Shown here: piece by piece, positions 14,027-57,200 of the stretch | Numbering within the stretch: the stretch's first letter is position 1 | Layout: each line of letters opens with the position of its first letter | Assembly (NCBI GenBank): GCA_037176725.1 | Contig: JAZBRS010000074.1 | Span: 64,980,001 to 65,044,000, forward strand | DNA: 64,000 nucleotides | Origin: Posidonia oceanica | Lineage: Eukaryota; Streptophyta; Magnoliopsida; Alismatales; Posidoniaceae | Direction of reading: 5' to 3' | Made by a program: the position numbers and the translations under genes | The notes under the pieces: generated by a model | What the model was told of the DNA's origin: nothing | Database searches by the model: none | Seen by the model: only the letters and a program-made list of their open reading frames with translations

Positions 14027-15710
14027 GGCTAAAACCATCACAAAACCACAACACACGCACACAGCACAAAACCTGTCAAGTCACCCTAGCCACAGGCAAC
14101 CGATCAGCCACAAGCAGTCGCTGGGGACTCGAACCTCGGTCCCTACTGCACTACCGCGAAGGACCACTCCGTGCTAGAGTCTGTCCGCCCCAGGAACTCA
14201 TCCCTTAAAGTCTATATATATATAACCACACGGGTACGTCCACCGACGTCCCTTGGTGCTCGAGCTACCCGAGGACTCTAATCCCGTACCCTACCAGCAC
14301 TGCACCCAAGTTCCCCGGGGACTCAAACCCCGGACCCTACAGCACACCTCAAGCCTTGGGGACTCGAACCCCAGACTCTTCCAGCAGCACGTCTAGGGGA
14401 CTCGAACCCCTGGCCCTACTAGGAAAAATACGGCAACCACAACCTCAGACTCCCACCCAACCTTTCAGAGGTATCAAACACCTTTGGTCTGCCGATATGA
14501 TCTTATAGCTTTGTGGCTCCATCCAAAAACTACGGAAAACTCTTTTCAAAACCATATGCAATTTTCCTCAAACCACTTTTCAAAACATTTTTCATCACAA
14601 GATTATCCGTGGGATTACACATTACATATAAACATTTGAATCATCAAAAGCAATCCAAAACACCATCAAACAGGGTCTAAACAGACCCAAAACACAGTAG
14701 CTACCCGTGGTAGGGATACGCGGTAGCTACACGCGGACAACCCAAAACAGAGCAGAAAACCAGAAACTCGCAGTGAATCCAAAAATCACCCTTTTTGGGA
14801 ACTTGATCTGATCTCAGCACAAGACACCAAAAATTCTACAAAATATACCAAAACGAAGAGCTCGAATTAATCTACCATTTGAAACAAAAATCACATGAAT
14901 TCGCTACTCGTAGCTCAAGATACAAAAATCTAAAGAGAGGAAGCTCATTGAGGTAAACAGTAGCCAAGCTATCAAAAAACCACTATAAAATCTTCGAAAA
15001 ATCCCAAAAACTTATGAAAACTCTACCATACAACGAAATCAAGCTGAGCAACACATTCTTATCATTTTTCATGCATAATTAGGAGGATAAAAATGGGTAG
15101 GATGCGTACTCGTATGCGCTGGCGAGCTCTCCTCCCTCTTCCGACCTCTGCTTCACCTCCTCTCCCTCTCCCTCTCTCTCTCTGGCTCTGGTCCTCACCT
15201 CTTCCTCTCTCTCTTGCTTTGCTCGCCCGACGCCCGTCCCCTCCTTTTATCAACCTCCCACCGTCGATAGCCACCCGAAAACACGGGTTGAACGGCAAAG
15301 GGCATGGCATGCATGATGGGGGCGGCGGCATGGAAATTATGAATTCCACTATGCTTTCTTGGCATTTCTTCCCATCTCAGGGTCCCACACATTCGTAGGT
15401 CACAATACGCCAAAATACCACACAATAAAGAGATAGACAGGGAAAGCCACAAACACAATAAGAGGATAACAAACACAAAGCCATCATGATTACCCAACAA
15501 ATGTACATATAATTATAAGTAATCAAATCTCAGTTCATCCAGATTATACTCAAACGGAAATCAATTTTCGATATAAGTCTTACATTATTTCTGAATTCTG
15601 AACTGGCCAAAATGTGCATCCAATCTGTCGTGGTAAAACGCGATGGAAACCCACGGTTGTCATTCATGGTAGATAACCGCAGCTGACCCATACAGACCTT
15701 AGGTGTTACA
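14027..15710 (-). repeat. R1 5' LTR, outer (U3) part
   Basis: This resumes the R1 LTR after R2. It aligns by phrase with R4 (54545-55806 and 60294-60627), for example CAAAACCTGTC, GAGCTCGAATTAATC and AGCCACCCGAAAACACGGG. It contains four tRNA T-arm-like hairpins (14123-14413), palindromes at 14673-14730, and a CT-rich stretch (15125-15220). It ends GTGTTACA at 15710. Confidence 0.85.
14123..14413 (-). repeat. Four T-arm/B-box-like hairpins in R1 LTR
   Basis: On the minus strand the phrase GGGGTTCGAGTCCCC or a one-base variant occurs at 14393-14413, 14355-14374, 14315-14333 and 14123-14137. Each has the form of a tRNA T stem-loop and matches the RNA polymerase III B-box consensus GGTTCGANTCC. 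No A box or cloverleaf was found, so these are not called tRNA genes. Confidence 0.6.
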
Positions 15711-15774
15711 GTTATACATCATCTTCAAAGTACAAGTAAACTAAAGACTTCCAAAGAAGAACCAACAATAATAA

Positions 15775-16020
15775 ATGTCCAACACTACATGCATGGTACA
15801 GCTCCAGGGAGGCTTCATCACAGGTGACAGGACAAAGCACATTTTGCTGAAATTCTTCTATACACATGAACTCCAAAAGAACGGTGAAATTGATGTCAAG
15901 CAAATCGGATCATGCGAGAATCTAATAGATCTGCTCACAAAATCACTCTTTCCCACGTCATTTAAGAAGCTGATCCAAAAGATAAGAATGAGGTGTTTTC
16001 AAGACCTTACTTCATAATTA
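15775..16020 (+). pseudogene. Ty1/copia RNase H C-terminal fragment
   Basis: The frame contains DRTKHI, KFFYTHELQKNGEIDVKQI, ENLIDLLTKSL and ends at a natural TAA (16018-16020). This is the usual C terminus of copia Pol, where RTKHI marks RNase H and the L-T-K motif is near the end. The part upstream of about 15775 is disrupted at the R1 insertion point (15710/15711). It is therefore the 3' tail of a copia element that R1 interrupted; the rest of its pol should lie left of R1, outside the window. Confidence 0.85.
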
Positions 16021-16246
16021 TTGTAATTTTAGTTTGTAAGTCTTGTAGTAAATAGGGGAGATATAATGAGAATTGTACTCTTTTTCCTTCGCTTTGGCTT
16101 TTTTCCACTGGATTTTCCCATAAGCAAGGTTTTAACAAGGCATATCTCATTCTCTCTGGATCTTGAAGTATCCACCTCATATTTCATGCGAATACTGAAG
16201 CATTTGGAAATATTTATTTTTTAACCTTATTTCTTAGGTACAATCA

Positions 16247-16782: not shown

Positions 16783-17732
16783 AAGCTCACTAGGAGTACA
16801 CATGGTTCGGTTCGGTTCGATTCTGACAAGAACGATGAACCGAACCATATCTATTGATTCTGACTATATTAGAACCAAACTGAACCATATATGTACTTGG
16901 AATCGAACCGAACTGAACTGTCAAAAAGTCGATCGGTTCGGTTTGGTTTTCGGTTTTCTATCTAAATATATATCAAAACATGATTCAATAATATTATTAA
17001 AAAATAATTAGTGAGAGTTTCAACTAAGATTATCATTTGCAACCATGAAAGTCGAACATTATGCATGCTGCCTCTAACTTTATAAACTTATAATCCAACT
17101 AAGATTATCTCGATTTACAATTAGTCCACGATGGTCAAGAATGCTATCATAATCTAGTTTGTTATAAACTTATAATCTAGTTTGTCAAGAATACCATTCA
17201 TTTACATAAATAAATGTAAATCAGTTGATATAAATAGATAGTGCAGAACCATTCAATTATTGCATGAAATGAAATGAAATGTGTAAGTCAATAATGAATT
17301 GCTAAGTCAACAATCTAATCTCCATTCAACCATTTAGAATACTCATTTCAATTTTTAAATGTATTATACTAAAGATGAATCAAATAAAACAATAAATATC
17401 CTGTGATAGTACACTATCAAAATTAATTTTAAGAAAATATGTTATCAACTAATGGTAGAAATTTAAACCCAATTAATCTAATGGTAGATGAAAAGTGGAG
17501 ATGTAAAATATTTATCTATATATAATATATTAATATATGGATCGGTTCTTGGTTCGATTTGGTTAACCATACTCAGAACCAAGAATCGAACCATTAAGAA
17601 CGGTTCTAAAATTTGAAAATCTAATCGAACCATTAAACAAATTTAAATCAAACCGAACTATCAAAAATAAAAAATATTGGTCCGATTCGGTTAATCAGTT
17701 ATGATCGAACCGTATGCACCCCTAAAGCTCAC
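16783..17732. mobile_element. Non-autonomous hAT-like element with 8-bp target duplication
   Basis: AAGCTCAC occurs exactly at 16783-16790 and 17725-17732. Between them is a 934-bp element starting TAGGAGTACACATGGTTCG and, read inward from the other end, TAGGGGTGCATACGGTTCG: 15 of 19 bases match and all mismatches are transitions. GGTTCG/CGAACC subterminal repeats are frequent on both sides (for example 16795-16945 and 17540-17715). The inside is AT-rich and encodes nothing recognisable. An 8-bp duplication with such ends is the hAT superfamily pattern. Confidence 0.88.
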
Positions 17733-19889: not shown

Positions 19890-19899
19890 AGTTAATCAC

Positions 19900-22378: not shown

Positions 22379-22390
22379 TTGGACGGCCAC

Positions 22391-25600: not shown

Positions 25601-27690
25601 TGTAACGCCCCCGACGTTACAAACTAGTACCAAACCCACCTAAACCTATTATTAAATAAATAATTCAATAAAGTGTAGGAAATTTAAATAAATAAACAAA
25701 TAAATAAACGAGAACAAAACTCAACAAAACCTAATTCTACCTAGAACCTATGGTATGCGGCTATGTAACTCCAACTACATGCACTAGACTGGATTGCAAC
25801 TCTACAATCTGCACCTGCAAGAAAACACCAAAAGCATGCATGAGTGACATCTAATCGTCACCCAGCACACGCCTAGCACTACTAAAAACAACAAATCGAA
25901 ACTGGAGCTGCTAGTACTCACCTCCCAAAGCCACACAACTGCCCCTCTCGGCAGCACCAAGGCTGAAGCCTATAAAGGCATCAAAACCTGCAAAACTCTA
26001 TTGCAGATAAGCATAAAATCCTTTTAAAACATGCTATTTCAAAACCATTTCTCTTTTCTCTTGCAAAACACGTGCATCTTTAAAATCTCTTTATGCACCC
26101 TTGGAATGGCTACTTTATGCCAAACCAAGTCCAAAAACCAGCACAAAGCCGCATCTCAAAACCAAGGTCTCCTCTAGATTAGAGTCTAAAAACCTCAATC
26201 AGAGCTCAGAAAAACACCAATCACAAAACCAAGGTCTTCTTTAGACTAGAGCCTGAAAACCTAAATCAGTGCTTGAGAAACCACAATCACAACTCACACA
26301 CACAGCATGAAAACCTGTCATGTCACTCTAGCCACAAGCGACCGACCAGCTCACAAGCAGCCGTCAAAGCGCACTGCACTGTCATGGCAGGACCACCCTA
26401 TGTAAGAACCCTCTGCCCTGGGTCTTTACTTTAAGAACCCTCTAAAGGTCTACTCTAGGACAAACACAAGGTACGCTCTCTCAGCATCCTAACTCAGGCC
26501 ACCAGGGAACTCTAACCTCAGACTCTACTAGCACTGTGCCCGGGCCACCTAGAGACTTTAACCCTGGACACTACCGACACTCAACTCGGCAACCACAACC
26601 TCGGACTCGTACCTAATCGTTTAGAAGTATTAATCGTCATTGGTTTGCCAATACGATCCTACGGCCGTTGTGATTCCCATAACTCGACAACCACAACCTC
26701 GTACTCGTATTCGACCCTTTAGAGGTATCAATCATCCCTGGTCCGCCAGTACGATCCTACGTTCCTTGTGGTTCTTACAGAAAACAACGGAAAACATGCG
26801 GACCTCATTCTAGGCAACTGACTCTAGACCATCTAGGGGTATCAGTTGTCCCTAATCCGCCGACCAAAAGCTTCGACCTCTTAGTCCCTCAAAACCTCAA
26901 AAATTATTTTCCAAAAGCCTTTGCAAATCTTATGCATTTTTTTTCTAAATTCTTTTTGGAAAACCATTTCAAAAGCCATTTCAAAATCAACTCAAAATAC
27001 CACAAAAACCATGCCAAACGTTGTACAAAAAGCCATGTCAAAACCACGCAAAACTTCATTCAAAATACCACCTAAAACCCCAAGGAAAGACCGTACTGCA
27101 GTTCACTGCAGTAGGGAGGCGCGTTAGAGATACGCGCCACCCCCACGCACTGGGAATACGTGCTAGAGGCACTCGTTGGGGACACACGCCTGTCCCCCGC
27201 GCCCCCAATGCAGAAAAGCTCAAGGCACCTTGCTCGAACCCAAACCTCAATCCCTGCCAAAACCAATAAATTCAACCACAAAACTCGAGGAAATTGAAAT
27301 TTAAACTATAAACCACACATTCACACAATAAACATACCAATCCACTCAAGAATCGGCTCAAAATCACACAAATGGGATGGATTCACTCGTGGAACCCATT
27401 CCCTTGCGCACGGCCTTCTCTGGCTGCCATGGCCACATGATCTCACTTGCGAGATCACATACACAATCCACACAATAACATGCAAACAATGAGCTAGATA
27501 GAGCATGTACCGTTCACCGATGATTGACTGTCACGCTCGCTTGATCACAGCAACGACGATGATCATAGTGGCTCCTTGGCATCATGACAGCAGCAGCAGC
27601 AACACGTCAGTAGCGGTGACGGCAATCGACGAACACGGACGGCCTCCTCATCCCCTCTTCTTCTTCTTCTTCCTAACCTCTCTCTCTCTC
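25601..27690 (-). repeat. R8: partial Tekay-type LTR
   Basis: It begins TGTAACGCCCCCGACGTTAC at 25601 (the 3' LTR end in minus orientation) and shares ordered phrases with R1 and R4: GGTATGCGGCTATGTAACTCC (25752), CTGCACCTGCAA, CATGAAAACCTGTCATGTCAC (26306). A palindrome cluster with ACTGCAGT twice (27095-27112) and GGCGCGT/ACGCGCC (27118-27138) sits where the other Tekay LTRs carry their own clusters. The right end is not clear, and no TTACA end with a duplication of GACTAC was found, so it is probably truncated. Confidence 0.72.
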
Positions 27691-28386
27691 TCTCATAAAA
27701 AATAACAGCAACACTAATACTAAAAATACAAGAAAAACATGTGTTTGCACTAATGAAAACAATAATAGATAACACAAAGCAATGCTTACCGCTCAGTTTA
27801 GTTTTAGTTTTGAATTTAGTTTTACTATATGATAAGTTTTTAGTTTTGGATGTTTTGGTTTTGAATTTAGTTTTAGTGATTGTGTTTTTTGTGAGAAGAA
27901 AGGTGAAGCACGTTCTTCATTTTTTTCAAAAAGAAGTCAAAAAAGAAATTTCACGATTCCCTCAAAATATTTTGTGCAATAACCGCAATTTCCTTTTTTG
28001 AAATGTTGTGCAATAATAGCACTAATTTGTGTTTTACAAGTGAATCCTAAAAATTAGTAACTAACTACAAAAGAAATCCACAATAAAAGGAAAGACGTGA
28101 TGAAATATTTATCCACAATATTTATTATTTCAAAAAAGAATTAAGAAATCCCACGTTTCCTTATAGATATTTTGACGAATCCTAAAAATTAGCAACTAAC
28201 CATAAAATAATCCATAATAAAAGGAAAGACGTGTTAAAATTTGTTATCATAAAACCATAAGCAATACAAAATAGAGGGAAATTAAAAACCACAAAACCAC
28301 CTAGACGTTTTAGTTGTTTTAGTAATAAGCCGGTGAATCGAGATCCAACTGACACTATGAACTTTACCTCATTTTATCTAGAGTAC
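27691..28386. other. AT-rich intergenic stretch
   Basis: No gene is visible. TTTAGTTTTAGTTTTGAATTTAG-like phrases repeat at 27795-27880, and a segment containing CCTAAAAATTAG-AACTAAC-AAA recurs at about 28048 and 28181 (an imperfect direct repeat). Confidence 0.4.
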
Positions 28387-30544: not shown

Positions 30545-33500
30545 AATTAATTCTTCTGATTATTGCCAATGCGTATTGCTTGCACGGTTTGGCATCGCAG
30601 TTTCTTGCCGCGGGTTGATACCACGTTTTGTTAGCGCGTATTGCTAGCACGTGTATCTGGCACGCATTGCTAGTGCGGAATGCTGGTGCGGAAAGTGCAG
30701 TATTCATGACCCAGAACTTAAGCTGCATTTGAGTGGTCTGGGCATTGCAGCCTTGTTTTGGATGTAGTGCTTTGGTGTTTTAAGGGTGAGGTGTTGTGTG
30801 TGGGCCCTTGTGGAAGTCTTAAGGGTCCATTCCGGGTTGTCGTGGCCAGTTGGCGAGCCTGGGAGGCTGATCTCCACTTGCTTGAGCCACTTGAGTTGTA
30901 AGTGGTTGAGTGGTTGTGGTTCTGTGCTCGTGGCCTTACATGTACGTGGTAATGGATTGGTGTTGTTTGCCGTGTGGTCTCGAAGTTGGTGCGCAGGGTT
31001 GTTGAGTGTTGGACTTGTGGTTGTGTGCACGAACTCATGGCCACTAATACGTGCATGGATTCTTCCTTAGCTTGTAGCCTTGCTCGAGCGTGGCTTCCTT
31101 CGCACGCCACATCTCCTTTACTCTTTCTCCCCCTTCTTATTCTTCTTCTTGACTCCTCTCCACCCTTTTTCTTATAACGAGAGAGAGAGAGAGGGGGAGG
31201 GGGAGAGGGGAGACAGAGAGGGAGAAGGGAGGCAGAGAAGATAGGGGAGGTCGTGGCCGTCATCGTCGCTGTAGTGCTGCCGTCGCCGTTGTCGAGAGGA
31301 GGAGGAGATCTAGAGTAGGCCAAGATGGAGGAGAGATGCGTCATCACTCGCCGTCGTTGTGTCGTTGTTGGCATCGTCGATGGAGGTACACACCCCGTAG
31401 ACCTTCTTTTTGAATTCATGGAATGATTGTAGGGGCATGTTAGTGTGGATTTGATGTGTGTGGAGGCTTGAAAGATTTTTAGAGGATTTTTGGTGGATTT
31501 TATTGTCATTTATGGACGACTGTTGGGTGAATAGTGTTTATATGTTTGTTTGATGTTTTCTTAGGCTACAGGCAGTGGATTTTGATGATTTCTATTCCAA
31601 ATGGAAGATCATCTCGAGATCTTCAATTTGGTATATTATTTGTGATTTTTGGTTGAGTGTGGTGGAATTGAGGTATTTTAGTTTGTCGTGGGTTTTACTG
31701 TACATGTGCATAGTAACCACGAGCTTTGGTTGGTGTTTTCTTGCGATCTGTTCAACGGATCTTTGTGATTTTTGTCTCGGATTGTAGGGTTCGTCGAGAT
31801 CTTCAATTCGGTATATCGTTTGTAATTTTTGGGGAAGGATGGATTTTTGGTCGTGAAAATTTAAAGTTGGTTTATACTAATCAATTAATGGGTCGTCTAT
31901 AGGAAGAACAATAGTTTTGGGAAATTTTGCATCCTTGTCCCTTATATTTTTTAGAACTGTATTTAAGTCTCTAGTTTTATATATTTATTGTATTTCAGTC
32001 CCTAACTTTTATATTAGATTTGCATTTTTGTTTCTAGTTTTATGTTAGTTTGCATTTAGGTCTCTAACTTTATATTAAATTACGTTTTGGTCCCTGAGTT
32101 TGGTGGATAGTTACTTTTTAATCCCTGAACTTTGTGGAACTTGCTTTTCAGTCCATGACTTTTGTTTGAATTACTTTCCAGCCCTTTATTTACATGATAA
32201 ATTGCATTTGGGTCCATAATGACTTGTTTTTTGTGGTTTTTAGTATGTTTAGTGTTACATTAATTTTGTATGTATTTATGGCATAATAATGATTAGGAAA
32301 ATCACTAGAATAATCTAAGGAATGCCTAAAATGGATTAGCAAGATCCCACTTGGACTGTAGCTAGATTAAAAGACTATAGAACTTAGAAATACTAAGTTC
32401 TCCCGTAAGTGGTTTAGATGAACATTAGGGATCATGACTTAACCCTAGGATTAGATGTTGGCTTGGTGTTTGATGTGGTGCACTTAATGAGTTATTCAGT
32501 GGCACTGTTTGGGTGTTTGACACTGAGCTGGCTGTGTCTTATGTAAGACACAGGCCAGTAGGCGTCTTACACTTTGGCACCAGGACTTAGGCTACATTTG
32601 TTTGTAGCTCTAGGTTGCTCTAGCTGCTCCAGTTTCCATGTAGAGCAGTTTCTTTACGCAAACAACATTGCTCTCGGAGGGCGAGAGTTATGAATATGCT
32701 AGCATTTTACTGTAGACAATGAGGAAATGGTGATCTTCCAGGGAGTGGGGTGCAGAAGGATCTTTCGGGCAGCAGCTACAATGCCGACTCCCAACTAGCA
32801 TTCTCTTGTTGGGATCCCCAAACAAATGTAGCCTTAGAGTTCTGGGTGTGTTTGGTGTTGCCGTTCAGTGTTGTAAGCTAAATGGGACTTCAAGACCATT
32901 GTTCTGGTTTTTGTGAGGCCTCTTCTGGGTAAACTCTATACCCAGAAAGTGTCTTTGGGTGATTTTAAATAGTTTTCAAATGGTTTTAGAAAATGTGGAG
33001 TGCTTGGGAATGGCTTCCCAAGGTTTTGGAAAAGTATTTTGAGGACCAAGAATCCTAAGCTCTCGGTCGGCCTTCAGGGACGAGTGATACCCCTAGGGCT
33101 GTTAGCTGTTTGCTTAGGGTGAGGTCCAGGTGTTTTTTGGCTTTGTGGGACCAAGAGACTGAGGCTCTCGGCCGGCCTTTAGGGATGAGTGATACCTCTA
33201 GGGTTGCGAGCTGTTTGCTTAGGGTGAGGTCCGTGTGGTTTTTGTGGCTGTAGAGGTTAGGACGCCGAGAGGGTGTATCTTGTGGTTTGTCCTTCAGGTG
33301 GAGGGACAACTCGCCCGAGTGTAAGGTGAGCGGCTTTCCCAGGTGGGGTTAGCCTTTTGAGGGTCCTTCAGGTGGAAGGACGTTGGGACGAACAGACTCC
33401 TCCACAAGGTGGTTGTCCGTGGCAGTGCAAACACTATGGTAGCTCCTTGGTGGACTACTTGTGGCCAATGTTGGTTGCTTGGCATCGGGCAGCACGACAC

Positions 33501-34295
33501 ACGACTGGTGTTTTGTTTGAGGTGGTGTTTGTGCCTATGTGGCGTTGCGGTTGCGCTAAAGTAGTGGGGTGGTTGTTGCGCCTGTGTGAAATTGTTGTTT
33601 GGCCTATGTAGCTTTGGATTTTTGACTGTCTGGTGGTTACTGTGTTGCATGTTCTAGATGCAATTGAAAGCCTTCAGACATCGTTGGCCGTCTGATCCGC
33701 ATAGAGAGTGCACGGGGTTTCAGACTGTGTGGTTTTGGGCTTGATCTGACAAGAGCAGCCATTTCATGTGTGCGTAAAGGGTTTGAATGAGCGTGCATAT
33801 GGTTTTGGTTTGAAATAAAGAAAAGAATGGTTTTAAATGCATGTTTTAAAGGTTTTGCTACTTGTTGGCAATAGGAAAGTGCTTTGGTGTGGTGTTGTGG
33901 CTTCCAGGTGAGATGCTGAGGTTCTGTTGCTTGTGGCGCAATTATGTCTGGTTCCTCGATGTTGTTTGCCGAGTTGGTTGTGTGTGTGTTTAGGAGGGGT
34001 GTGTGCTGGGTGACTGTTTTGAGTGATCACTCATGTGTACTTTGTTTTGGTGTTTTCACAGGTGCAGGATAGGAGCCGTATTTTACTAGTGCACATAGGA
34101 AGGAGTTACACTACCACACATCAGGGGTTATGGGTAAGTGAGTTAGTTTTATTTTTAGTTGTTTATTAGATTTATTTATGATAGCAGTGCTTATAGTATT
34201 TGTTAGATTTAACCTCCTGTAGTTAATAAATGTTAACTAAAAAGATTAAAAAAAATGTAGCTAGGTTTGAGAGGTAGCAACTTGAGGGTCGTTAC
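30545..34295 (+). repeat. R7: Tekay-type LTR, plus orientation
   Basis: The right end GAGGGTCGTTACA (to 34295) matches the 3' end of Tekay LTRs. Inside, the block ATTTCTATTCCAAATGGAAG, then CGAGATCTTCAATTTGGTATAT (31588-31636) is the plus-strand form of R1 14820-14930. It is present a second time at about 31795-31825. Other contents are a GCA/GCACG-rich start (30570-30700), a CT/GA-rich stretch (31100-31250), a degenerate TTTTGGTCCCT array (31920-32230) and the palindrome at 32532-32553. No primer site follows 34295, so it is a solo or broken LTR. The left end is only approximate. Confidence 0.72.
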
Positions 34296-34296
34296 A

Positions 34297-34585: not shown

Positions 34586-37550
34586 TGTAGACACCTCGTT
34601 TTGACAACTGGTCATTGGTGGATCCATCTGGAAGCATGCTTGGATCGTGGCATGGCAAACTTAAACCCCCACTTAAACCCAAACCCTAATCCCAACCTAA
34701 ACCTCACCTAAATCCCACCTAAGCCTACCCTAATCCTAAGCCTAAACCTTAACCTAAGCCAACCCTAGAAAATCCTTAAAACACCCCTAAAACATCTCTA
34801 GGTTGTTGGACGCTGCCTAGGCTAGCGTCCTATGTTGGACGCTGCCTGTGCCAGCGTCTTACGTAGGATGCAGCTCAGGTGAGCATCCAACACGCTGGCT
34901 GTGATAGTGCCTTTGGCCTGAGCTCCGACACACCCGGAGCCGTCCACCGCCAGCTCCGCCGCTCCCCACGGACTGCCTCGTCACTTGGCTCGGCCCAGGA
35001 GCCGACGTTGCACCATGGAGCCACCCGTCCAAGCCTCAGCTGGCCACACAGTTCTTCTCCCGTGCAAACGGCCGCCCACGACCTCCATGCTGGCCTGACA
35101 CCTCCTCTTGACTTTCACCACCCCTGACACCTCCCACGACCTCGCAACAATGCCACCACGTCCTCCCACGATCTCCCCACCTTGCCCTGCCACTAGGATC
35201 CCCTGTGCAGCTTGACTGAACAAAACCAAGCAACCCAACCCATCTTCCACCATCAGCAACCAATTCCGAGAGAGAGCGAGAGAACCAGAGCCCTCCCAGC
35301 CACCTCGAGCGATCTTGAGTGCTCCCCCCGTGTGCGAGAAGGCTTCTCGTGTGTTCCCCAGCCTCCTGGCCACCCTCCGAGCTCGCCGTTCGTTCACCAT
35401 CACCAACGCCAGTCGGCCACAGCGCACATCCTCGGTCGCTCCACAAGTGAATTTTCTTCACCCATAGCGTAGGAGTGTTCGTGGTAGCTTTATGTGCCAT
35501 GTTTTACACGTAATATACATGCATTCATTCCTTTCCCCTTGCTTCCCGGAGTCCAGTGATGGGTTCACCACCTGCACGAGGCCACCGGCCTGTGAGCGCG
35601 TGGCAGCCCTCATCTCGGCCACTGTGGCTTGCTTGAGGTCACTGGAACCTTCCCAACCCCTCTCCTCCTCTGTTCGACTTGCCAGGCACGTTCTTTGAGC
35701 TCCCGGCTGTCTCAACGGCTGGTGATGCGAGCAGCCGTCGACGATCATTAGGTGGAGGTGGGTGGAGTGATCCAGAAGCCCATTTAGCATAAATTATGCA
35801 TGTTTGAGTTCGTTTTCACTCGCTCATGCTTACTAGGTAGCTAGTTTTCCATTTTCAGTCGATTTGGATGCTTAATCATGCTCTGAGTTTTCCCGATCTG
35901 TTAGATGCAGAAACTAGTGCATCTTACGTATGACGCACCCTGTCACAGCGTCTAACGTCCCTGTTTGTTTTTTTAAATAAGCTTCCTTGCAAATGTGGTT
36001 CGGATGTTGTTCTATGTGGATTAATATGATGCATGCTTTCTCATGAACTCTTGGATACCATGTTTTGGATCACATGTGGTTTTTTGCTTGGAATTCTTTT
36101 CCTTTTTAAAAAAAAATATCTATCCTAGGCGTAAGATGTAAGGATCCCTGTGTCTTATGTAAGACGCAGGCTCCCTCAACGTCTTACACTCCAGTTTACT
36201 ATTTTGCAAATAACATCTAAAAAATCATTTTCTTTGGAATGCTTATATGGTTAACGAATGCATGTCAATTTTTGGGCCACTTTCAGTCATCTTCTGGTTT
36301 GCATGATACATATTTTCTGATTGAGTGCTAAGTCTTTTTTGAATCAGCCTTCTCTGTGTTGGACGCAGCATTTCCTACGATTTTACATAAGATGCAGGGG
36401 GTTGCAACATCTTACGCCCCAAAGCTTTATTTTTAATATCTGCACCTAAAATCTTTCTCTTTTAGGGTGTTGGTTTGATTCTTGAATGTATGCCAAGTTC
36501 TTATCCCTTTTTTCAGTTGCTCTGTGATTTTCATGGCTAATGGTCCCTGAATGCATGCCAGTTTTGACAGAATATGTTCTCTGCGTTAGACGCTATGAAC
36601 ACCTGCATCTTATGTAAGACGCAGGGATTGTAGCGTTTAACACCCTGAGTTTGTAACATCCAGATTTCATGCTTGCTCTTTGTTTCTGTGCTTTGATTGT
36701 TATTGCACTGATTATCTGGCTTGATCTATTTGTCCATGGCTTTCATATGGCATTAAAATCCTTGTTTTCCCAAATGAGCGCCCTTTCTGCAGATTTCTGT
36801 CCCCTGTGTTGGACGCTGAGTATTCCAGCGTCTTACATAAGACGCTGGCTACTCCAGTGTCCAACATTTTAAAACTGCTGCACTTTGGTTTTAAGCTCTA
36901 CTTTGATTCAAACATCATTTTTTCACCTTTAGTCGCTTCTATGTGCATGTTCTAGCATCCAGACATGTAGTCTAATACTGGTTTTCTAGTTTTTGCGCCG
37001 TGGTTTTGTTTCCCCGATTTGTTTATCATCACACCAGGGCATGTTTACTTTAATTAGCCATTTTGGCATGGTTTTACTAAGCTTTGCATGGTTTATAAAT
37101 GCATGTTGCATACCGCCCTCGGGCAAACATAAACCGGCGTTATACGCCAACATTAGCCACACAAGAGCAGATTAGCCAAGAAAGACGGACTTCCTTGGAC
37201 GTATCGGGGGTGCCTAACATTTTCCCCGTGAGTAATAGGAGTCCTTACCCTTTCTCTGGACCGCATTGACCTTGTGTCATATATATTTTGATCGGATTTG
37301 CATATTTTCGAACTGCATGAGTTTTTCTACATATTTTTGCATACGGTTTTCCTAGTCTTTCGGTTTTAATAGATTAGGTAGTGACTCCATGTCTTTTCTC
37401 TTATTTTCCTTTGCGTTTGCCTCTGTTTTTTCCGATGTTTTCGAGTCAATTTCTCCGCAGATCCACCATTAGCCGTGGCCCCTCTCCTCGACCGGCGCAC
37501 GCGAGCTTTGGCAGCATGTGCCCACATCGCCGAGAACAGTCATAGCAATA
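34586..37550 (+). repeat. Tat A 5' LTR
   Basis: It starts TGTAGACACCTCGTTTTGAC and ends near CATAGCAATA, one base before the primer site. Contents are degenerate telomere-like CCTAAACC phrases (34666-34790), at least six inverted-repeat units built on GCGTCTTA/TAAGACGC (34807-36870), and the conserved 3' block GTATCGGGGGTGCCTAACA (about 37200), shared with Tat B and R6. It is about 2.97 kb. Confidence 0.88.
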
Positions 37551-37551
37551 G

Positions 37552-37569
37552 TGGCGACTCCGCTAGGGA
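37552..37569 (+). promoter_or_regulatory. Tat A primer binding site (tRNA-Arg)
   Basis: TGGCGACTCCGCTAGGGA is complementary, with two mismatches, to the 3' end of plant tRNA-Arg(ACG). This is the primer used by Ogre and related Tat elements. It sits one base after the LTR. Confidence 0.85.
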
Positions 37570-48544: not shown

Positions 48545-48545
48545 G

Positions 48546-48563
48546 TGGCGACTCCGCTGGGGA
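48546..48563 (+). promoter_or_regulatory. Tat B primer binding site (tRNA-Arg)
   Basis: TGGCGACTCCGCTGGGGA is complementary, with one mismatch, to the 3' end of plant tRNA-Arg(ACG). It lies one base after the LTR end, at the same position as in Tat A. Confidence 0.88.
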
Positions 48564-49720
48564 TACTAGACTCCGGCTTTCGTTTCCGCTCTTCCCCTTT
48601 CTGTGTGGCTTATTTCTTTGCTTAGCTTAGCACTTGTTGCCTTGTTTATTTACTTGCAGCATCATGCTTTATTCATTGCTTATCTCAGCATTTATCTGCT
48701 TATCTATTGCTTTAATTCATGCACTTTCTTTACTCTAGCATCTGATTGCCATGTTTGCATGATTTATTGCTTTAATCCATGCCTTTTGTCTGATGCTTGG
48801 GTTATTTCACACAAGTATGCCATGTCACCGCACTAATACACATGTCATGCTTGCATATGCCTTTTGATGTGCTAATTGTCTTTCATTTTCACTGATTATG
48901 ACCACAACATTAGCACATACCATGCGCATGCCTTTTGCAATGATGTGTGTTGCTTGCTTACCATGTTTGGGTGATTTTCTTCCCCTTTGTTGCACTAAGC
49001 CTAAGGACAATTAAAGACTGATTGCTTCCCCCATGGCTAACTAAAAATGGCAAGTAAAAATCAACTCTAGGAGCAACTAGAGACCTCAACACACCTGCAT
49101 TTCCTTTGAGTTAATAAAACGCGCAAGATAAAAAACTCTAAGCATTTGCATGAAGCATCATATAAGGCATGCATCTTCTCATCTGTGTCCACCTACCAGT
49201 CTGAGAAGGATAGTCCCGGCCTCTTGTTCCATTGCTTTGGCATGGCCCAAGTCAGCCGGTCTGTCCCCCCTTGTCAGGGGTCGTGTCGGTGCTAGTGGAG
49301 GGTACCACCCATGCTCCATGCTTTTGGCAAGGTCAAGGCCACCAACGCACCACCCCGTTACTACCTGAGCTCTGGCCAGGATTTAGACAGGGACCTACAT
49401 TTTCTGGCCTGAGTCGGTGACCCATACACCTGTAAGTGTCCGAAGTAGACTGGTGAGAGAGAGCATGCTAGACAGCATACATCTGCATGAATGCATTCAT
49501 ATCATACACCTGCTTTTGTTTGTTTTGTGCCTTGTCGAACAGGTCAGTGAGTGAGTTCCCTAGCAGGAGCTTGAGTTCTTTCTCTTACTAACGCCCTTGT
49601 TGCGACACCTATTCCCGACCATCCTCTGCCGAGCTACTCGCCTTCACGATAATAGCTCCTCGTAGGACTCGTTCTCTTACTTTTCGTCGCAACCCTGTTC
49701 TCACTCGCTCTCAGTCAGCG
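48564..49720 (+). other. Tat B leader
   Basis: This untranslated region is collinear with the Tat A leader. Shared phrases are TTGCTTAGCTTAGCA, ATGGCTAA-TAAAAATGGCAAG (about 49033) and the block 49195-49440. It ends at the gag ATG in AGTCAGCGATGGCCCAG. Confidence 0.75.
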
Positions 49721-51880
49721 ATGGCCCAGTTTGCTGGTGAGTCCTAGATTCTTGTTGCCTCGGAGGAGATTTCCTCTTTGCTCCCTCCGACTCTCGCTTC
49801 GACTCCCTCTGTGCCCCTTGTGACACCAGGGTTTCACCCTCTAGTGCTTGGGGCACCCCAGTTTGCTGCAGGGCATTGGCAGACCCACGCCCCACTGGAT
49901 CCGGTCACTGAGCCCATCTTGATGACCCCTACTCGCGCTCCGAAGGCACCTCTGACCCCTCTGTCTAAGGGCTATGTCGCTCTCGACATCCCTTCTGCTG
50001 CAGCTACCTTTGCCATAGATTCTCTATCTCCTAGACAGTCTGTGTCCCGACCTCTTGAATCTGGTCCCCCGCCGGTCCTGCAACTCAGTATACCCACTGA
50101 TGGGTCCCCTGATGAGCAGTATCAGCATCTGATGGAGACTGCTCAGAGACTGCAGGGCATGGCTCTATCTCTTCGCCCTTCCTTCGCTCCCGCTGCTCCC
50201 AAGGTTCCTCTGTAGCCTACTCCCGCCTTTTAGGCTTTCTCCTCTACACTCCCGCCTAGACCATCGCCCCAGTTTCTCACTGCTCCGGTGATGGGGGCAC
50301 AGCTTCTGCCTCCTGCATCTACACAACACTATACACAGCATGCACCTTCGCCACCTGGTGGCCAGTCCTTCAGGTTGGTTAGAGCACAGTACCCCACAGG
50401 CTCGCTACCTGGCACCGTGCCAGTGCAGCAACTGTTGCTCCCGCACTTTACATCACCCACTGCATTGCATCCTAGCTATCCTTACCCCATGCATCAATTT
50501 CCTACCCCAGCATGCATCCCAGCATACACTGCAACAATGCATGGATAAGACAGCCATCACGTCGCGCCACCAGGCAACGCGATGGTGGACCCAGAGGAGC
50601 ACCTCGGTGCGACCCAAACGGCGTATGTGGTCCCTGCCCCTGCTGTCCCATCACCTTCGGTAGCCAATCCATACCCCATCAATAACAGGATGGACGTTCT
50701 GGAGAATGCACTACGTCTAGTGCAGGGCGCTGACCACCAGTCCTACCAATTCCAGGACCTCTGCTACTTTCCAGAGGCGGTGCTCCCATCGAAATTCCGT
50801 ATCCCAGATTTTGATAAATACAATGGTAGAGGCTGCCCTGTCGCCCATCTGAAGGCATACTACGGAGATCTCGCTCAGCTTCAGGTTGACGAGAGGTTGC
50901 TGATCCGCTTGTTCTAGAAAAGTCTGACCGGCCCGACCCTCAAGTGGTTCACCTCGCTTGACATGGCCGCCATCAAGACGTGGAACAACCTTAGCCAGGC
51001 GTTCCTGGAGCAATACTCCTTCAACCTCGACTTGGTCCCAAAGCACACGGACCTAGTCGCAACCAAGCAGAATCCCAACGAGCCGTTCGGGGAGTACATC
51101 GGCCGCTGGCGCGCCCTTGCCTCACAAGTTTGAGATGGACCCTCTAACGAGGAGTCCCTCGAGATCGGTATCAGAGGTGTGCAGCCATCCACTAGGGCTC
51201 TGCTCAGCATTCAACCTATCACAACCTTTACAGCACTGATTCGGGCTGGCACCCGCGTAGAGAGTTTACTACGGAGTGGCAACTTCCCTGCACTCTCTGC
51301 GTTTGCCAAGCAGGCTACCATTAGCAACAACAACAGTAGCAGCACCACCAACAACAAGAACAGCGGTAGCAGCAGTAGCCGTCCTAGGAAAAAGGATTCA
51401 CCGAAGACCGCTGTTACATACGTCGACCCCTCGCCCATGCCTGTTCTTCTGTCGATTCAGCCTCCCCCGAATCAAGTACTATTTACACCAGCACCTAGGG
51501 CACCCCCCACTCCACAAATCACTACCACTGCCCAACCGGTCTATCCTACTGCATCGATCCGGCAAGGGCAACACCAAGGGCAGAGACGACATTTCAGAGA
51601 GCGGAGCCAATGCACTCCACCGGTGGAACCGTTGAGTGTCGTCCTCCCCAAGGTCGCACCATACCTGAGGTTTCCCGAGGTTCGCCTACCACCAATCCCA
51701 CTTCCACATTGGCATAAAGCGAATCTTTTCAGCGACTTCCATCGAGCCGTAGGGCACTTGACGGATAGTTGTTTCACTTTGCAGGACGTTGTTCAGGACC
51801 TGATCGAATCGAAAATGATTATGATCTACATGCACGAGGCATCCACTTCTGCACCTCCATCAACATCTGCCCCTGCCTTA
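49721..51880 (+). pseudogene. Tat B Gag, better preserved than A
   Basis: The start is ATG 49721 (MAQFAGES, then a stop at 49745). The Pro-rich region is open from 49778 to 50211, with stops at 50212, 50230 and 50548. The capsid at 50740-51130 reads PEAVLPSKFRIPDFDKYNGRG, HLKAYYGDLAQLQ, a TAG where Tat A has Gln (50917-50919), then KSLTGPTLKWFTSLDMA, QAFLEQYSFNLDLVPKH, NEPFGEYIGRWRALASQV, and a TGA (Arg codon, 51133). The Ser/Asn/Lys-rich nucleocapsid (51320-51400) and the zinc-like motif (FHRAVGHLTDSCFTL, about 51735-51780) follow. Confidence 0.86.
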
Positions 51881-53146
51881 GCATTAGCATCTCCCCATTC
51901 CAGCATCGTCCACCAGCCTCTGCCAGAGCATTCCAACCTGGGAGGCGCGGGGACCTCAGGAATCCACTCTCTCTTCCCTTCCGGGCCTGCCACGTCTGTG
52001 GTAGACCCCTCTGAGCTTATTCATGACATCTCTGAGCCCTTTCCCTTCTCCCTCTACCGTACGGCAGTTGCCGGCTCCGAGTCGGGGATTCATATGATCC
52101 AACCGCGCGCTAGGCCGGAGCGCTCTACCGCGCGACCTGCCATGCATCCTCAGGCTCAAGCCCCTGTTCACCTTCAGGCTAGACCTCAGACCCAAGCCCC
52201 TGCCTCCCTCTTAGGTAGACCCCAATTAGGACCCCCTGTCTGCCTACTAGCTAGGTCTCAACCAGGGCCCTCATCACCTTCTCAGTAGCATCAACCATCC
52301 CCCCATCGCCCAGTAAATACCCCTATAGCACCTCTTGTGCTCGCAGCACATGCTCCCGTAGTTATCAACCTAACCAGGGACACCCATTGCGTGCCCTACA
52401 ACTACGCCATGGAAACATGCACGGAAGTCATGCGATTGGAGAGGGTCTACAAGCCTACAGCACCAGTGTTTAGGCCTAGCTATCCAGTACCCGCTGTACC
52501 TCCACCAGCAGGCCAACCTGCAGCACCTCCACCATCAGGCCAATCCTCTGGTCCCACCGCAGTAGTGCCTACCACCAAAGCCACTTCCCCTACCACCAAA
52601 AAGAGCCAACCCAAGGCTGACATCACCTCCCAGCTTAAGAAGGTTAGGGCAGACATTTCCATTTGAGACCTCATACACACATCCTCTGAACACCGTGAGG
52701 TTTTCCTCTGCGTGTTCCAAGCTGCCCATGTGTCCCAAACCATTGAGCCTGCAGCCCTGGAAAGCATGGTAGGCATGATCGTGGAGCCCCAAGTCATCTC
52801 TTTCACGAGCGATGAGCTGCCTCCGGTGGGGATTAATCACAACCAACCCCTGTTTGTCACGGTGCAATTTGACAACTTCCGCATTCCCCTTTCGCTGATT
52901 GATAATGGTTCAGGCCTTAGCGTCTATCCCTTACGTACAGCAACCAGGCTCGGATTCAAAGCCGAGGATATCACTCCAGCTATAAAGGGAATGACAGCTT
53001 TTGATAACACCCACCATAACTCCTTAGGGATTTTGATTATTCCCCTCACCATTGGCCCGGTCGTATTCGATGTAGAATTTTACATTGTCAACTTGGAGCC
53101 CAATTTCAATCTTCTGCTTGGGCACCCTTGGCTGTACAAGCATTAG
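51881..53146 (+). pseudogene. Tat B linker and aspartic protease
   Basis: The Pro-rich linker runs to a stop at 52287 (Gln codon in Tat A), then a second frame to a TGG-to-TGA stop in ISIW (about 52664). Protease at 52850-53146 reads FRIPLSLIDNGSGLSVYPL, KGMTAFDNTHHNSLGIL, IVNLEPNFNLLLGHPWLYKH, then a TAG where Tat A keeps Gln. The protease itself is open and has the catalytic Asp. Confidence 0.86.
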
Positions 53147-53170
53147 GTCATCCCCTCGACCCTCCATCGC

Positions 53171-54235
53171 ATGATCAAGTTCCGCTGCGGCGACGATGTC
53201 ATCGTCGTCATGGCGGAAAACTTTGAGAATGAGCGGATCGAGGCAGTTTCTCCCGTCTCTTCACAGACTGTCCCCTTTGACCTTGAACTTTCAAATGCTT
53301 TATACCGCATTAACCGGTCTGAGCAGGTTAACTTTATTCCTGATCTTGAATGCGTCAACTCCTTGGCCATTCACAGTAACCCCTTCTGGATGGTTGAAAA
53401 CGTCTGTCACAGATGGGACTATGTCAAGGGAACGCCGCTCGGGCGATATGGCCAGGGGATCGCTGAGCCAATCGTCGCAGAGGAGCGAAGAGACTCCGAA
53501 GGTCTCGAATACGACCCACAGTCCAATGGAGATAGACGCATGCAACCAAAGAATCGGAGGATCACCATCCGTCGGGACCTCACTAACTTTACCAGTGCAG
53601 GTACCCTTGGTTCGAGCAGCAGTGAAGCCCCAGCACAGCAGGTGTCGTGCCCGAGCTCGCCACTGCCGATAGATGAGTGGGTCTGCATTGAGGACTACTA
53701 CTCGGATGAGGAGCAGTCTGGCACAGTTGATGCAGCCCGGACCAGCAGTGAGGTCCAGCTCAACGCGACAGCATCTCGGTCAGTTTGTCTGGCACTCTCC
53801 TCTACAGATACAATAGCAAAATTAGCAGGCCCTGTGGCACGATTTACAGTCTCTCCCCTTTCTGCAGTTTCACTAGCATCATGGAGAGCCACAGCAGCAG
53901 CTTTGGAGTCAAGAGCACGTCCTCAGGCACTGTTAGCCAATCTGCCCATGGCCGTAGTCGCATCAGCACAGCTGTCACCCATTCTGGAGGGTCAGTTAGT
54001 CAGTTCAGCCAGCAGCGTGACTCAACCCATTTCAGCAGTCGCATCACCAGTGACATAGGTGGCTCCATCAGTCATACAGCCTCCTGCCTCAGGACATCAA
54101 GCCTCGTGGTGGGCCCCCATGGCATCTCCGGCCGCACAACCACTATCACCAGCAGATGCAGGCTACTTGACGGCCGGCGCAACCGCCTGGTCATCGGCCC
54201 TCCAGAGGAGCACTTTTGCCTCCCCTCCAGCAACA
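53171..54235 (+). pseudogene. Tat B G-patch-like segment and linker, cut at R4
   Basis: The frame 53171-54058 is open: MIKFRCGDDVIVVMAENFE, RINRSEQVNFIPDLE, WDYVKGTPLGRYGQGIAEP, DEWVCIEDYYSDEE. It is collinear with Tat A 42050-42780 and ends in an Ala/Ser-rich linker. Homology to Tat stops at about 54235. Confidence 0.75.
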
Positions 54236-57200
54236 TAATAACTACCCAGATCCTGTGATGTGCGGCTACATGGCTCCAACTATAAACTTATGCACCAGAC
54301 TAGACTGCAAACCTTAAATGCATCTGCAACAAAACAAGGAAAACACGCGTGAGTGACACTATTGTCACCTAGTACGCACCTACCAAAAACCAGGCAGGAG
54401 AAAAGCACAAAAACTGAACAAGGCATATCTATCAGAGTAAGTAGGGAAATCTCTTTTTAATCATGCCTTTCTCTGAAAATCACTTTGCAACTAAAGGCAA
54501 GCCAAAACCCTAGCTAAGACTGTCACAAAACTATGACACACGCACATCGTGTTCAAAACCTGTCGAGTCGCCCTGGCCATAGGTGCTCGACCCAACCACA
54601 AGCAGCCATTAGGGGCCTCAGCCCTTTACCGTGCACTGCACTGCTGCAGCAGAACCACCCTGTGCAGGAGTTCACTGCCTCGGATTCATGAGTCACGAAC
54701 CCTCAAAGTCCACATCGAACAACAAACACACAGGGTACACCTAAAGGTGTCCTAACTACTGCGGTCACCTGGACCATGGGCCACCCTGAGGACTCTTTCA
54801 CCCCTAACCTGACCAGTATCTAGCTGGAACGACCTGGGAATTTCATTCCCAGCTTCAGGACACCGTGGGGACTCTTTCACCCCTAGCCCGTTCCAAAGCA
54901 TTTCTCAATTTCCCAGAAATCATTTGGAAATCATTATCATATTGCCAAAACATTTACAAAACCATTACACTATTTGGCAACTCCAAGAACTCAAAACCAT
55001 CTGGCAAGAAAACCACACAAATATGGCTCAGGGGTCACTTTCGGTAGACCAAAATTATTCGGTCTACCAAACCTAGACCAATGTCCACACCCAAACCCTG
55101 ATTCGGCATATCGGAAATGTCCAGTCGACCGAACAGCTTGCTATCCCAGTATACCGAAATGGGTCGGTCGACCGAACCAAACCCTGGGCTCACATCCTGG
55201 AGCAAAATCGGCATAATGAAACAGCTCGGTATACTGGAACTTGGGCACAAACGGCATACCAAAATAGTTCGGCATGCCAAACCTAACGATTCAGGAAAAC
55301 CTCAAAACAGGGCAATCAAAAATCGCCCAAAATGGGAACCTCAACGAGTCCCAACACAAGCTACGAGAAATTCCACAAAATACACCGAATGAAAGAACAC
55401 GAAGTGCTCTATCATTCAAAATAAAAATCACAATATTTCATCCATTGTAGCTCGAGAAATAAAATTCCAAAGACATAAAGCCCATTCGGCCAAACCGATG
55501 AATTTTCAACAAAATCCACTGTAAAATTCATCCAATAAATCCATAAGGCCATACAATCTCATTCATGCATTAAGAATTAGCTAATCAACCTATCATTAGG
55601 GATTTTGCATGAGATCTAAGAAGGAAAATGGAGTAGGACGCGTACGAGTCGCCGGCAAGCTTCTCCTACTATCTTCTTCCTTTTCCGGTTGCTGCCCTCT
55701 CGCACGCACGCTATCCTTCTCCTCCCACCAGTCCTTCTCCTCCAGCTTTCCTCTCTTGCCCTCCACCCTATGACTGGCCACCCATCTATTATCAGCCACT
55801 GCTGCCTGTTGACACCCCATTTTTTTCGATTTTTGTGGCTCTCTCTCTCTCTGGTGGCTTCACAACCCTAAACCTAAACCTTAAACCCAACTAAACCCTA
55901 AACCCTAGAGAAACCCTAGGTAAACCCTAAACCCTAGAAAAAAACCTAGCAAAAATCCTAGGAAAAACCTCCCAAAACCCTAGAAACCCTAGGTCACACA
56001 CTCACACAAAACCCCTTTCAAATCTAAGCCATTATTCTTCTTTCTCTCCTCATTATTCTTTTCTCTCTCCTCATTATTCTTTTCTCTCTCCTCCTTCTTT
56101 TCTTACTCCCTAGTGGGCCCAGCCGACTCTTGCTCCTCCTCACTTCTTCCCCTTCCTTCCTTCTATTTTTATTTTATTTTATTCCATTTTATTTGATTTT
56201 TAATTTCCTCTTTCCCTTTCTTTCCTCTTTCTTCTTTTTTTCTTTCTTTCTTTCTTTCTTTCTTTCCTATCTTCCCATTTCTTTTTTCTCCCCTTTTATT
56301 CCTCACCCAACACCAAAGCCCAATCCACCTCCCTTCCTTTCCCTTTTCCTTTATTTATTTTTCTTCTTCTTCCAAAGCCCACTCCATTTTCCTTCCCTTC
56401 CCTCTCCTTTTCCTCTTTTTTCCACAGGCCCAAGCCCACTGCCATCTCTCCCCCTCTTTCTTTTCTTTTCAACTTCCTCCCATAGCCAGCCCACTCCTCC
56501 AGCCCGTTTCCCTTCCTCCTTCTCCTTCTGTTTTTTCCTTCTTTCTTTTCCTTTCCCCAGCACACGATTCCCTCCTTTTCCCTCTACTTCAAAAGCCTGC
56601 ACTCACAAGCCTCACACAACACTCAACCAACACAGCAACACTCCATCACCTGCACTCACAAGCCTCTCACAAGTCTCAGCCACCACTCAACACTCCAACT
56701 CCTCCTACACTCCCCCTCCTCCTCACCAGACCACTCCACCCTCTGCCATTGCCAGCGGACCACCTACAAACAAGCCAGACCCATGCCCTGCCAGCCTCCT
56801 CACTTGAGTGGCCAAGCTAGAACAAAACCAACTCCATCTTCATCCTTGAAACCGAGGGGGGGAGGAAAAACACAAGAAAAAACACCCAGAGAGCACCCAC
56901 ACACTCACTCAGACCAGAGGGAGGGAGGAGAAGAGGAGAACGACCCCAGAAAACACCCATAACCCACACCCAGGAACACTTAGACATTCCCACGCAATTC
57001 CCACACCTCCAGAGCCTCTCCAACTCCCATAAATCACCCCAGAACCCATCTCCTCCACCACTGCCTCCTCCAGCCCAGAACGACCTCCACAGCTCCTAGA
57101 ACCCAACCAAACCTCTCCAGCCAACTCACCAGACAATCACCTTCCCAGGCCTACCAACACCTCAGCCTGACACCCCCTGTGGCCCCAGAAATCCACCACA

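What the first reader, a model, noticed from the sequence alone, without database searches (positions are those of the whole stretch)
14673..55275. Tekay LTRs carry a position-conserved but sequence-variable palindrome cassette
Four Tekay-type LTRs (R1, R8, R7, R4) share a block with the phrase CTCGAG-CTTC-TTTGGTATAT or its decayed forms. Just downstream in LTR direction, each has a different set of short palindromes. R1 has GTAGCTAC twice (14697, 14723) and GGGTCT/AGACCC (14673-14688). R8 has ACTGCAGT twice (27095-27112) and GGCGCGT/ACGCGCC (27118-27138). R7 has a 22-bp palindrome (32532-32553). R4 has TTCGG/CCGAA units (55030-55275). The flanking LTR sequence aligns but the cassette does not. 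A site that keeps its architecture while its sequence is replaced suggests selection for dyad symmetry, for example sites for dimeric DNA-binding factors, or a swapping process. I know of no standard LTR feature that explains this.
Basis: partly seen in the sequence, partly recalled or inferred. Interest (0 to 1): 0.82.

Follow-up and report, generated by a model that had tools for sequence, protein, structure and literature searches.

The report
Palindrome-word arrays in plant retrotransposon LTRs
Four old retrotransposon control regions in this stretch of plant-type DNA each carry a cluster of short palindromic DNA words; two of the four share their word and its spacing with different elements nearby, so the clusters are likely landing sites for paired DNA-binding proteins, a kind of feature already described in another group of retrotransposons.

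Summary
The palindromes are where the finding says. Plain palindrome counts equal chance (185 vs 188); repeated palindromes do not. R1, R8 and R4 hold them at homologous LTR positions. R7's lies in the same interval, which there is 1.1 kb wide and carries inserts. "Sequence-variable" needs correcting. R1 and R8 share a hairpin word. R4's cassette is ten degenerate TTCGG-N4-CCGAA palindromes in five pairs 18 bp apart; the same word and pairing recur at 7129-7383 in another element. R7's palindrome is one four-half-site module (18/19-10-18/19 bp) that recurs at 34.8-36.9 kb.

"No standard LTR feature" is wrong: Sireviruses carry such palindromic repeats, often with a CGG-CCG core (PMC2829016), and Del/Tekay LTRs have a plastic CpG island (PMC4029996). 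New are the arrays in Ty3/gypsy LTRs, downstream of the presumed start site, with word and spacing shared between elements. Mismatches show no strand bias (12:12), so I favour DNA sites for dimeric proteins over RNA hairpins (about 0.5). The window's own genome could not be searched, so the sample is four LTRs.

The parts
13574..15710 (-). R1 LTR, upstream part (starts TGTAACACC at 15710)
4764..5276 (-). R1 LTR, downstream part (ends GTGTTATA at 4764, next to TTGGTATCAGAGC 4749-4761); split from the rest by element B
14673..14739 (-). R1 cassette: GTAGCTAC twice, GGGTCT/AGACCC, hairpin word CGCGTATCCCTACC
   Evidence: (fold peak 14620-14739, z -4.57)
25601..27700 (-). R8 LTR; ends GGGGGCGTTACA at 25601, upstream end not defined
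27090..27200 (-). R8 cassette: ACTGCAGT twice, GGCGCGTATCTCTAACGCGCC and two related hairpins
   Evidence: (fold peak 27070-27189, z -4.56); 11 CpG, 2 of 182 same-length LTR windows have as many
54232..55990 (-). R4 LTR; both ends approximate
55040..55281 (-). R4 cassette: ten degenerate TTCGG-N4-CCGAA units, start-to-start 18,44,18,25,18,44,18,25,18 (105-bp period)
31165..34296 (+). R7 LTR; upstream end not defined, ends GGGTCGTTACA; carries 30-bp tandem repeats and a MITE-like insert 32586-32837
32516..32569 (+). R7 cassette: one four-half-site module around the 22-bp palindrome 32532-32553
   Evidence: (fold peak 32510-32629, z -5.19)
7129..7383 (-). B array: eight TTCGG-N4-CCGAA-like units in four pairs 18-19 bp apart, inside nested element B
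7050..7059 (-). CTATAAATAG about 70 bp from the B array (one of five places with this 10-mer on either strand)
34806..36864 (+). seven four-half-site modules of R7's kind (inner palindromes at 34825, 34854, 35919, 36150, 36378, 36605, 36828; the first two overlap and share half-sites)
5277..6779 (-). B terminal repeat, left copy, with GTCGCC-N9-GGCGAC inverted words (three exact)
12066..13573 (-). B terminal repeat, right copy, same words (three exact)
15173..15250 (-). R1 GA-rich leader with TATA-like GATAAAAGG upstream; in LTR sense upstream of the cassette

Best explanation
Four Tekay-type LTRs in this window each hold a cluster of palindromic DNA words in one homologous interval (a wide one in R7), and these clusters likely act as arrays of binding sites for dimeric, probably host-encoded DNA-binding proteins that would regulate transcription of the element. 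Shown: the words, their repetition, the fixed spacing in R4 (pairs 18 bp apart) and in R7's module (18/19-10-18/19 bp), and the reuse of the same word and spacing in other elements at 7.1-7.4 kb and 34.8-36.9 kb. Inferred: that a protein reads them, that it binds as a dimer to DNA and not to RNA, and that LTR lineages gain and lose words as they change their regulator. The cassettes lie roughly 0.4-1.4 kb downstream of a GA-rich leader (with a TATA-like box just before it in R1 and R7), so they would work as downstream, transcribed enhancers, unlike the Sirevirus motifs, which lie upstream of TATA.
For: Same palindromic 8-mer twice within 60 bp: 7 pairs vs 0.30, R1 and R8 among five places. 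TTCGG-N4-CCGAA with at most one mismatch: 8 sites in 64 kb (shuffled mean 0.74, max 3), four in R4, four in the B array, none elsewhere. Pairs at 17-20 bp: five in R4 (shuffled mean 0.31, max 5), four in B (max 3). Four-half-site module: R7 28/32, seven others 25-31, next in window 19, best of 100 shuffled windows 24. Fold peak on the cassette in 3 of 4 LTRs, close second in R4. No strand bias of mismatches (12 G-T, 12 A-C in LTR sense) and no excess pairing between partners, as expected for DNA dyads. CpG enriched in R4, B and R8. In Sireviruses such motifs stand near the promoter (PMC2829016), and in ONSEN a host factor is shown to bind inverted half-sites in an LTR (PMC3907296, passages).
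Against: No binding, expression or selection data. Four decayed LTRs only; own genome unreachable. Simple palindrome counts and a coarse scan give nothing for R1, and the exact-word test picks none of the four cassettes. R7's position is loose and its cassette is CpG-poor (o/e 0.18). The module and word consensus were written after seeing the sites, so their scores are partly circular. Pair spacing in R4 partly reflects a 105-bp tandem duplication. At least one shuffle of R4 reached five spaced pairs. The start site is guessed from sequence; R4 and R8 lack a TATA-like box. No single known factor matches these words in any call.
Confidence: 0.5

Rival explanations
1. The cassettes act at the RNA level: transcribed palindrome clusters would fold into miRNA-like hairpins that feed small RNAs and silence the element, with change of the letters as escape.
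For: The cassettes are the fold peaks of R1, R8 and R7 and nearly of R4. Windows of 110 nt under -40 kcal/mol, the published miRNA-like cut-off, cover the cassettes of R8, R4 and R7 (PMC10760457 passages). In maize, palindrome-rich Sirevirus LTRs attract small RNAs (PMC10760457 passages citing Bousios 2016, which is not held).
Against: R1's cassette and the B array do not reach -40, and R1, R8, R4 and R7 each have one or more low-energy regions outside the cassette. Stability is alike on both strands in R1, R8, R7 and B; only R4 is clearly stronger in sense. Mismatches show no sense bias (12:12).
Confidence: 0.2
2. The arrays have no function: short palindromes arose by template switching or slippage and were multiplied by tandem duplication in fast-changing, unconstrained LTR sequence.
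For: R4 has a 105-bp tandem period at 52% identity; R1 has a 13-bp tandem repeat over its palindromes; unit copies are degenerate.
Against: Arms are kept while spacers are not: R4 and B share arms and 18-bp pairing but no spacer homology, and eight modules keep 18/19-10-18/19 spacing with unlike flanks. Simple duplication does not explain the same word in two different elements.
Confidence: 0.2
3. Chance plus hand-picking: the reader chose the best palindromes in each LTR and they happen to lie in roughly the same interval.
For: Total 8-mer palindromes equal shuffles; coarse scan zero for R1 and weak for R8 and R4; R7 alone is reached by 30% of shuffled windows; R7's interval is wide.
Against: Repeated-palindrome and word tests.
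Confidence: 0.05
4. RNA dimerisation: the words would be self-complementary contact sites that let two copies of one element's RNA pair, which needs symmetry but no fixed sequence.
For: Only self-complementarity is conserved; the cassette is probably transcribed, since it lies downstream of the presumed start.
Against: No sense-strand wobble excess; sharing of words between unlike elements would defeat self-recognition.
Confidence: 0.05

Closest known systems
Sirevirus (Ty1/copia) repeated motifs, RM boxes (PMC2829016; passages and section 9 seen)
   Same: Clusters of palindromic words in the LTR, element-specific in sequence, mostly with a CGG-CCG core, tied to CpG islands; the Vitis word CGGTCGACCG is contained in R4.
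   Different: There upstream of a TATA box and called Sirevirus-specific; here in Ty3/gypsy LTRs, downstream of the presumed start site, and only R4 and the B array have the CGG-CCG core.
Plastic 5' CpG island of Del/Tekay LTRs (PMC4029996; abstract, passages and section 14 seen)
   Different: That paper does not mention palindromes (0 occurrences) and finds the island in monocot groups only; R7's cassette is CpG-poor.
[quoted passage not shown] passages about it in PMC10760457)
   Same: Palindrome cluster with high predicted structure in the LTR.
   Different: PMC10760457 reports that Ty3 elements of maize generally lack an obvious peak of miRNA-like structure; here the cassette is the peak or second peak in four Ty3-type LTRs.
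TRAYC-like satellites of Silene latifolia (PMC3212565; passages seen)
   Same: A palindrome is the only similarity between otherwise unlike repeats.
   Different: Satellites of 165 and 200 bp with a 73-bp imperfect palindrome, not LTR word arrays.
ONSEN heat response element (PMC3907296; passages seen)
   Same: Works like: inverted half-sites in an LTR read by a multimeric host factor.
   Different: One known motif with proven factor and binding; the ONSEN LTR lacks CG sites.

Membership tests
Sirevirus RM boxes | Host element is a Ty1/copia Sirevirus | tested here: not met
   R1's element has RVT_1 (E 5.4e-26) and RT_RNaseH (E 5.4e-29) domains, the Ty3 type by general knowledge; R4, R7 and R8 are assigned by LTR similarity only.
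Sirevirus RM boxes | At least eight copies of one palindromic word | tested here: inconclusive
   R4 has ten units, but only four at one mismatch or fewer; B array eight units, four at one mismatch or fewer. R1, R8 and R7 have fewer.
Sirevirus RM boxes | CGG-CCG core (12 of 13 published words) | tested here: inconclusive
   Met in R4 and the B array; not in R1, R8 or R7.
Sirevirus RM boxes | Cluster lies shortly upstream of a TATA box | tested here: not met
   The four cassettes lie downstream of the GA-rich leader and, in R1 and R7, of a TATA-like box. The B array does lie about 70 bp upstream of CTATAAATAG.
[quoted passage not shown]
   R1, the one LTR with both ends defined: cassette starts about 970 nt into some 2.65 kb.
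Del/Tekay plastic 5' CpG island | CpG-enriched | tested here: inconclusive
   Cassette vs rest of LTR, CpG o/e: R4 0.95/0.51, R8 0.92/0.71, R1 0.87/0.71, R7 0.18/0.56. No CpG-island program was run.
[quoted passage not shown]
   R1 and R4 align up to the cassette and again beyond it, not across it; no rate was measured.
Del/Tekay lineage | Chromodomain in the integrase | not tested
   R1's element runs off the window before that domain; the other three LTRs have no assigned coding region.
ONSEN-like factor-bound LTR element | Demonstrated binding of a host factor | not testable with these tools
   No binding data available.

The most novel reading that the evidence does not exclude
Different retrotransposon lineages in one genome converge on, or trade, the same spaced palindromic operator modules: the Tekay LTRs R4 and R7 carry the operators of other elements (the B array; the modules at 34.8-36.9 kb), possibly read by a regulator encoded by a Tat/Retand-type element, so that one retrotransposon rides on another's control protein.
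Probability: 0.12. Interest if true: 0.85.

Novelty: new variant of a known kind. Interest (0 to 1): 0.5.

Why it matters
If true, palindromic repeated motifs described as specific to Sireviruses are a wider device of plant LTR retrotransposons. Sharing of word and spacing between different elements gives a direct handle on the unknown protein that reads them, and a testable reason why the LTR is such a fast-changing part of these elements.

Tried and rejected
Coarse palindrome density scan: the three strongest windows (22751, 29201, 24501) are AT-rich or TA-repeat stretches outside the four LTR cassettes; the scan gives no support. Exact repeated inverted words: 4 cases, none in the four cassettes. 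Integration preference for palindromes (PMC6911290, passages): no effect in Tekay there (5.4 vs 5.4, p 0.61), and it concerns insertion sites; rejected. A shared insert behind R4 and B: unmasked arrays align better than shuffles (46 vs max 36) but with palindromes masked the score is 19 against a null mean of 18.3 (124 of 300 as high); no detectable homology outside the words. Hairpin between members of a pair: no excess. Relatives elsewhere: viral contigs by protein (13 stretches matched, none a relative) and by pattern (0); genome contigs 1 locus, L001, whose LTR-like part has one repeated palindromic 6-mer and no 8-mer, so no cassette is evident there. Own genome: all unanswered. A Retand-type antisense DNA-binding ORF: not found in 11 of the 13 minus-strand ORFs of 120 aa or more listed between 34.9 and 57.9 kb (cut-offs 0.01 to 1). 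Paper search with six short sequences: 2 papers, judged from the listing only, neither on retrotransposon LTRs. Two reviews or surveys holding both 'Tekay' and 'palindrom' were checked by passage: one gave the Silene precedent, the other nothing of use.
Full report
The window holds nested LTR retrotransposons. R1 is a minus-strand LTR that starts TGTAACACC at 15710 and ends GTGTTATA at 4764, next to TTGGTATCAGAGC. It is split by element B (terminal repeats 5277-6779 and 12066-13573, 95.7% alike). R8 and R4 (minus) and R7 (plus) align to R1 or to each other (R1-R4 E 1e-41, R1-R8 1e-32, R7-R8 1e-28, R1-R7 1e-16). R1's element has RVT_1 and RT_RNaseH domains, so it is of Ty3/gypsy type.

The named palindromes are there. 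In R1 and R4 they begin directly after the shared block (R1 to 14755, R4 to 55295). In R8 they lie between homologous flanks with a weak left anchor. In R7 they lie in the same interval, but it is about 1.1 kb wide and carries 30-bp tandem repeats and a MITE-like insert with 19-bp inverted ends.

Chance controls are mixed. The 185 non-AT 8-mer palindromes match the shuffled mean of 187.9. A coarse arm-length scan gives R1 nothing and R8, R4 and R7 scores that 85, 93 and 30% of shuffled windows reach somewhere. Repetition is different: the same palindromic 8-mer twice within 60 bp occurs 7 times against 0.30 (0 of 300 shuffles), in R1, in R8, in both terminal repeats of B, and three times in a 41-bp tandem array at 59.1 kb. 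Exact 5-base inverted words repeated three or more times within 300 bp occur 4 times against 0.01; one is the B array, one lies at 55904-55993 in R4's LTR outside the cassette, two are at 59.1 kb; none is in the four cassettes.

They peak on the cassette in R1 (-4.57, 67 windows), R8 (-4.56, 69) and R7 (-5.19, 101). In R4 the cassette is second (-3.46) to 55350-55469 (-3.52) of 55 windows. The interval holds 13, 14, 39 and 24% of the windows in R1, R8, R7 and R4; the product, 0.0018, would be the chance of all four falling inside, and three did. Over the whole window 1.6% of 1598 windows fall below -4, and the strongest are elsewhere; reading those led to R7's sister modules.

R4 is an array of one word. 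Ten degenerate TTCGG-N4-CCGAA units (up to three mismatches; shuffles give 4.5 on average, at most 9) stand at start-to-start distances 18, 44, 18, 25, 18, 44, 18, 25, 18, a 105-bp period of paired palindromes. Five pairs at 17-20 bp compare with a shuffled mean of 0.31 and a maximum of 5. At one mismatch or fewer the word occurs 8 times in 64 kb (shuffled mean 0.74, max 3): four in R4, four at 7129-7271, none elsewhere. The second array, inside B, has distances 18, 44, 19, 48, 18, 76, 18 and ends about 70 bp from a minus-strand CTATAAATAG, a 10-mer found at five places. B has an aspartic-protease match on that strand, below Pfam's cut-off. With the palindromes masked the two arrays show no detectable homology.

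R7's palindrome is a decayed copy of a four-half-site module: outer TTGGACGC-like, inner GCGTCTTA-N2-TAAGACGC, outer GCGTCYAA-like, 18-19, 10 and 18-19 bp apart. Seven more modules lie at 34.8-36.9 kb, two of them overlapping (scores 25-31 of 32; R7 28; next best in the window 19; best of 100 shuffled windows 24). They stand upstream of a plus-strand element with weak RVT_1 and good RNase H matches; a Tat-type primer-binding motif, by recall, is at 37553, one of seven hits of that 8-mer. R7 matches them over the module only. The consensus was written after seeing the sites, so the scores are partly circular.

R1 and R8 are not independent words: CGCGTATCYCTAMC occurs twice in the window, once in each cassette (shuffled mean 0.02). 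So R1 and R8 seem to diverge from a common state, while R4 and R7 carry words that other elements in the window also carry.

DNA or RNA? In LTR sense the outer arms show G-T and A-C mismatches of 10:5 in R4 and 2:7 in B, 12:12 in all; pairing between partners equals self-pairing (45 and 45 of 70; 36 and 36 of 56). This gives no support for a sense RNA hairpin or RNA dimer, but the numbers are small and the two arrays lean opposite ways. R4's fold is stronger in sense. Low-energy 110-nt windows cover the cassettes of R8, R4 and R7 but not R1 or the B array, and occur outside the cassettes too. CpG o/e is 0.95 in R4 and 1.17 in B against 0.51 and 0.26 around them, 0.92 and 0.87 in R8 and R1 against 0.71, and 0.18 in R7 against 0.56.

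Comparison. Sireviruses carry at least eight palindromic copies of an element-specific word, 12 of 13 with a CGG-CCG core, mostly upstream of TATA; the Vitis word is CGGTCGACCG, and the authors call the feature Sirevirus-specific (PMC2829016, section 9 and passages). Del/Tekay LTRs of monocot groups have a 5' CpG island variable in length and sequence (PMC4029996, abstract, passages and section 14). In maize, Ty3 elements generally lack an obvious peak of miRNA-like structure while Copia LTRs have one; the same palindrome is also the commonest motif of structured Helitron regions (PMC10760457, passages), so a word shared between element types has a precedent. In Silene, otherwise unlike satellites share only a palindrome (PMC3212565, passages). 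Retand elements often carry antisense ORFs with a predicted DNA-binding domain (PMC11963269, passages); none turned up in 11 of 13 ORFs scanned here. ONSEN shows that a host factor can read inverted half-sites in an LTR (PMC3907296, passages).

Verdict. The best reading is an array of sites for dimeric DNA-binding proteins, which is inferred, not shown. New, as far as ten searches of open-licence papers go (of their hits eight papers were opened, by passage or section), is the presence of such arrays in Ty3/gypsy LTRs and the sharing of word and spacing between different elements.

Noticed in passing
R1 15100-15109 and 4958-4968 (-); R8 27501-27510 and 25810-25820 (-); R4 55636-55645 and 54319-54329 (-); R7 31386-31395 and about 34060 (+): All four LTRs share a GTACRYRYYC motif before the cassette, and near the LTR end a T-rich tract with CAG before RTGCA (R7: TTTTCACAGGTGCAG). 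These look like 5' and 3' splice sites, so the cassette may lie in a leader intron. GTACRYRYYC also occurs at three other places in the window.
   Followed up: partly
14120-14420 (-), R1 LTR: Repeated GGGGTTCGAGTCCCC-type hairpins that resemble the T-arm/B box of tRNA genes (recalled); decayed forms in R8 and R4.
   Followed up: no
6049-6745 and 12842-13538: Terminal repeats of element B carry GTCGCC-N9-GGCGAC inverted words (three exact in each) and five copies each of CCACGTCA, a bZIP-type site by recall; 10 of the 11 CCACGTCA in the window lie in these two repeats.
   Followed up: partly
59098-59250: 41-bp tandem array with TGCATGCA repeated, upstream of a third plus-strand gypsy element with gag and RVT_1 matches.
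   Followed up: no
53147-54058 (+): Open frame with a G-patch match just above Pfam's cut-off (E 0.00013) in the element 48069-53720 and beyond; odd for a plant LTR element.
   Followed up: no
32586-32837: MITE-like insert in R7 with 19-bp inverted ends (18 of 19 pairs) and TTA on both sides.
   Followed up: partly
16790-17725: Stretch with GGTTCGGTTCG/CGAACCGAACC arms at both ends, like a DNA transposon; two of the strongest fold windows of the scan.
   Followed up: no
L001 1-6891: Contig of an uncultured Trichormus MAG that holds a plant-type gypsy retrotransposon, probably host-plant DNA binned with the cyanobacterium.
   Followed up: partly
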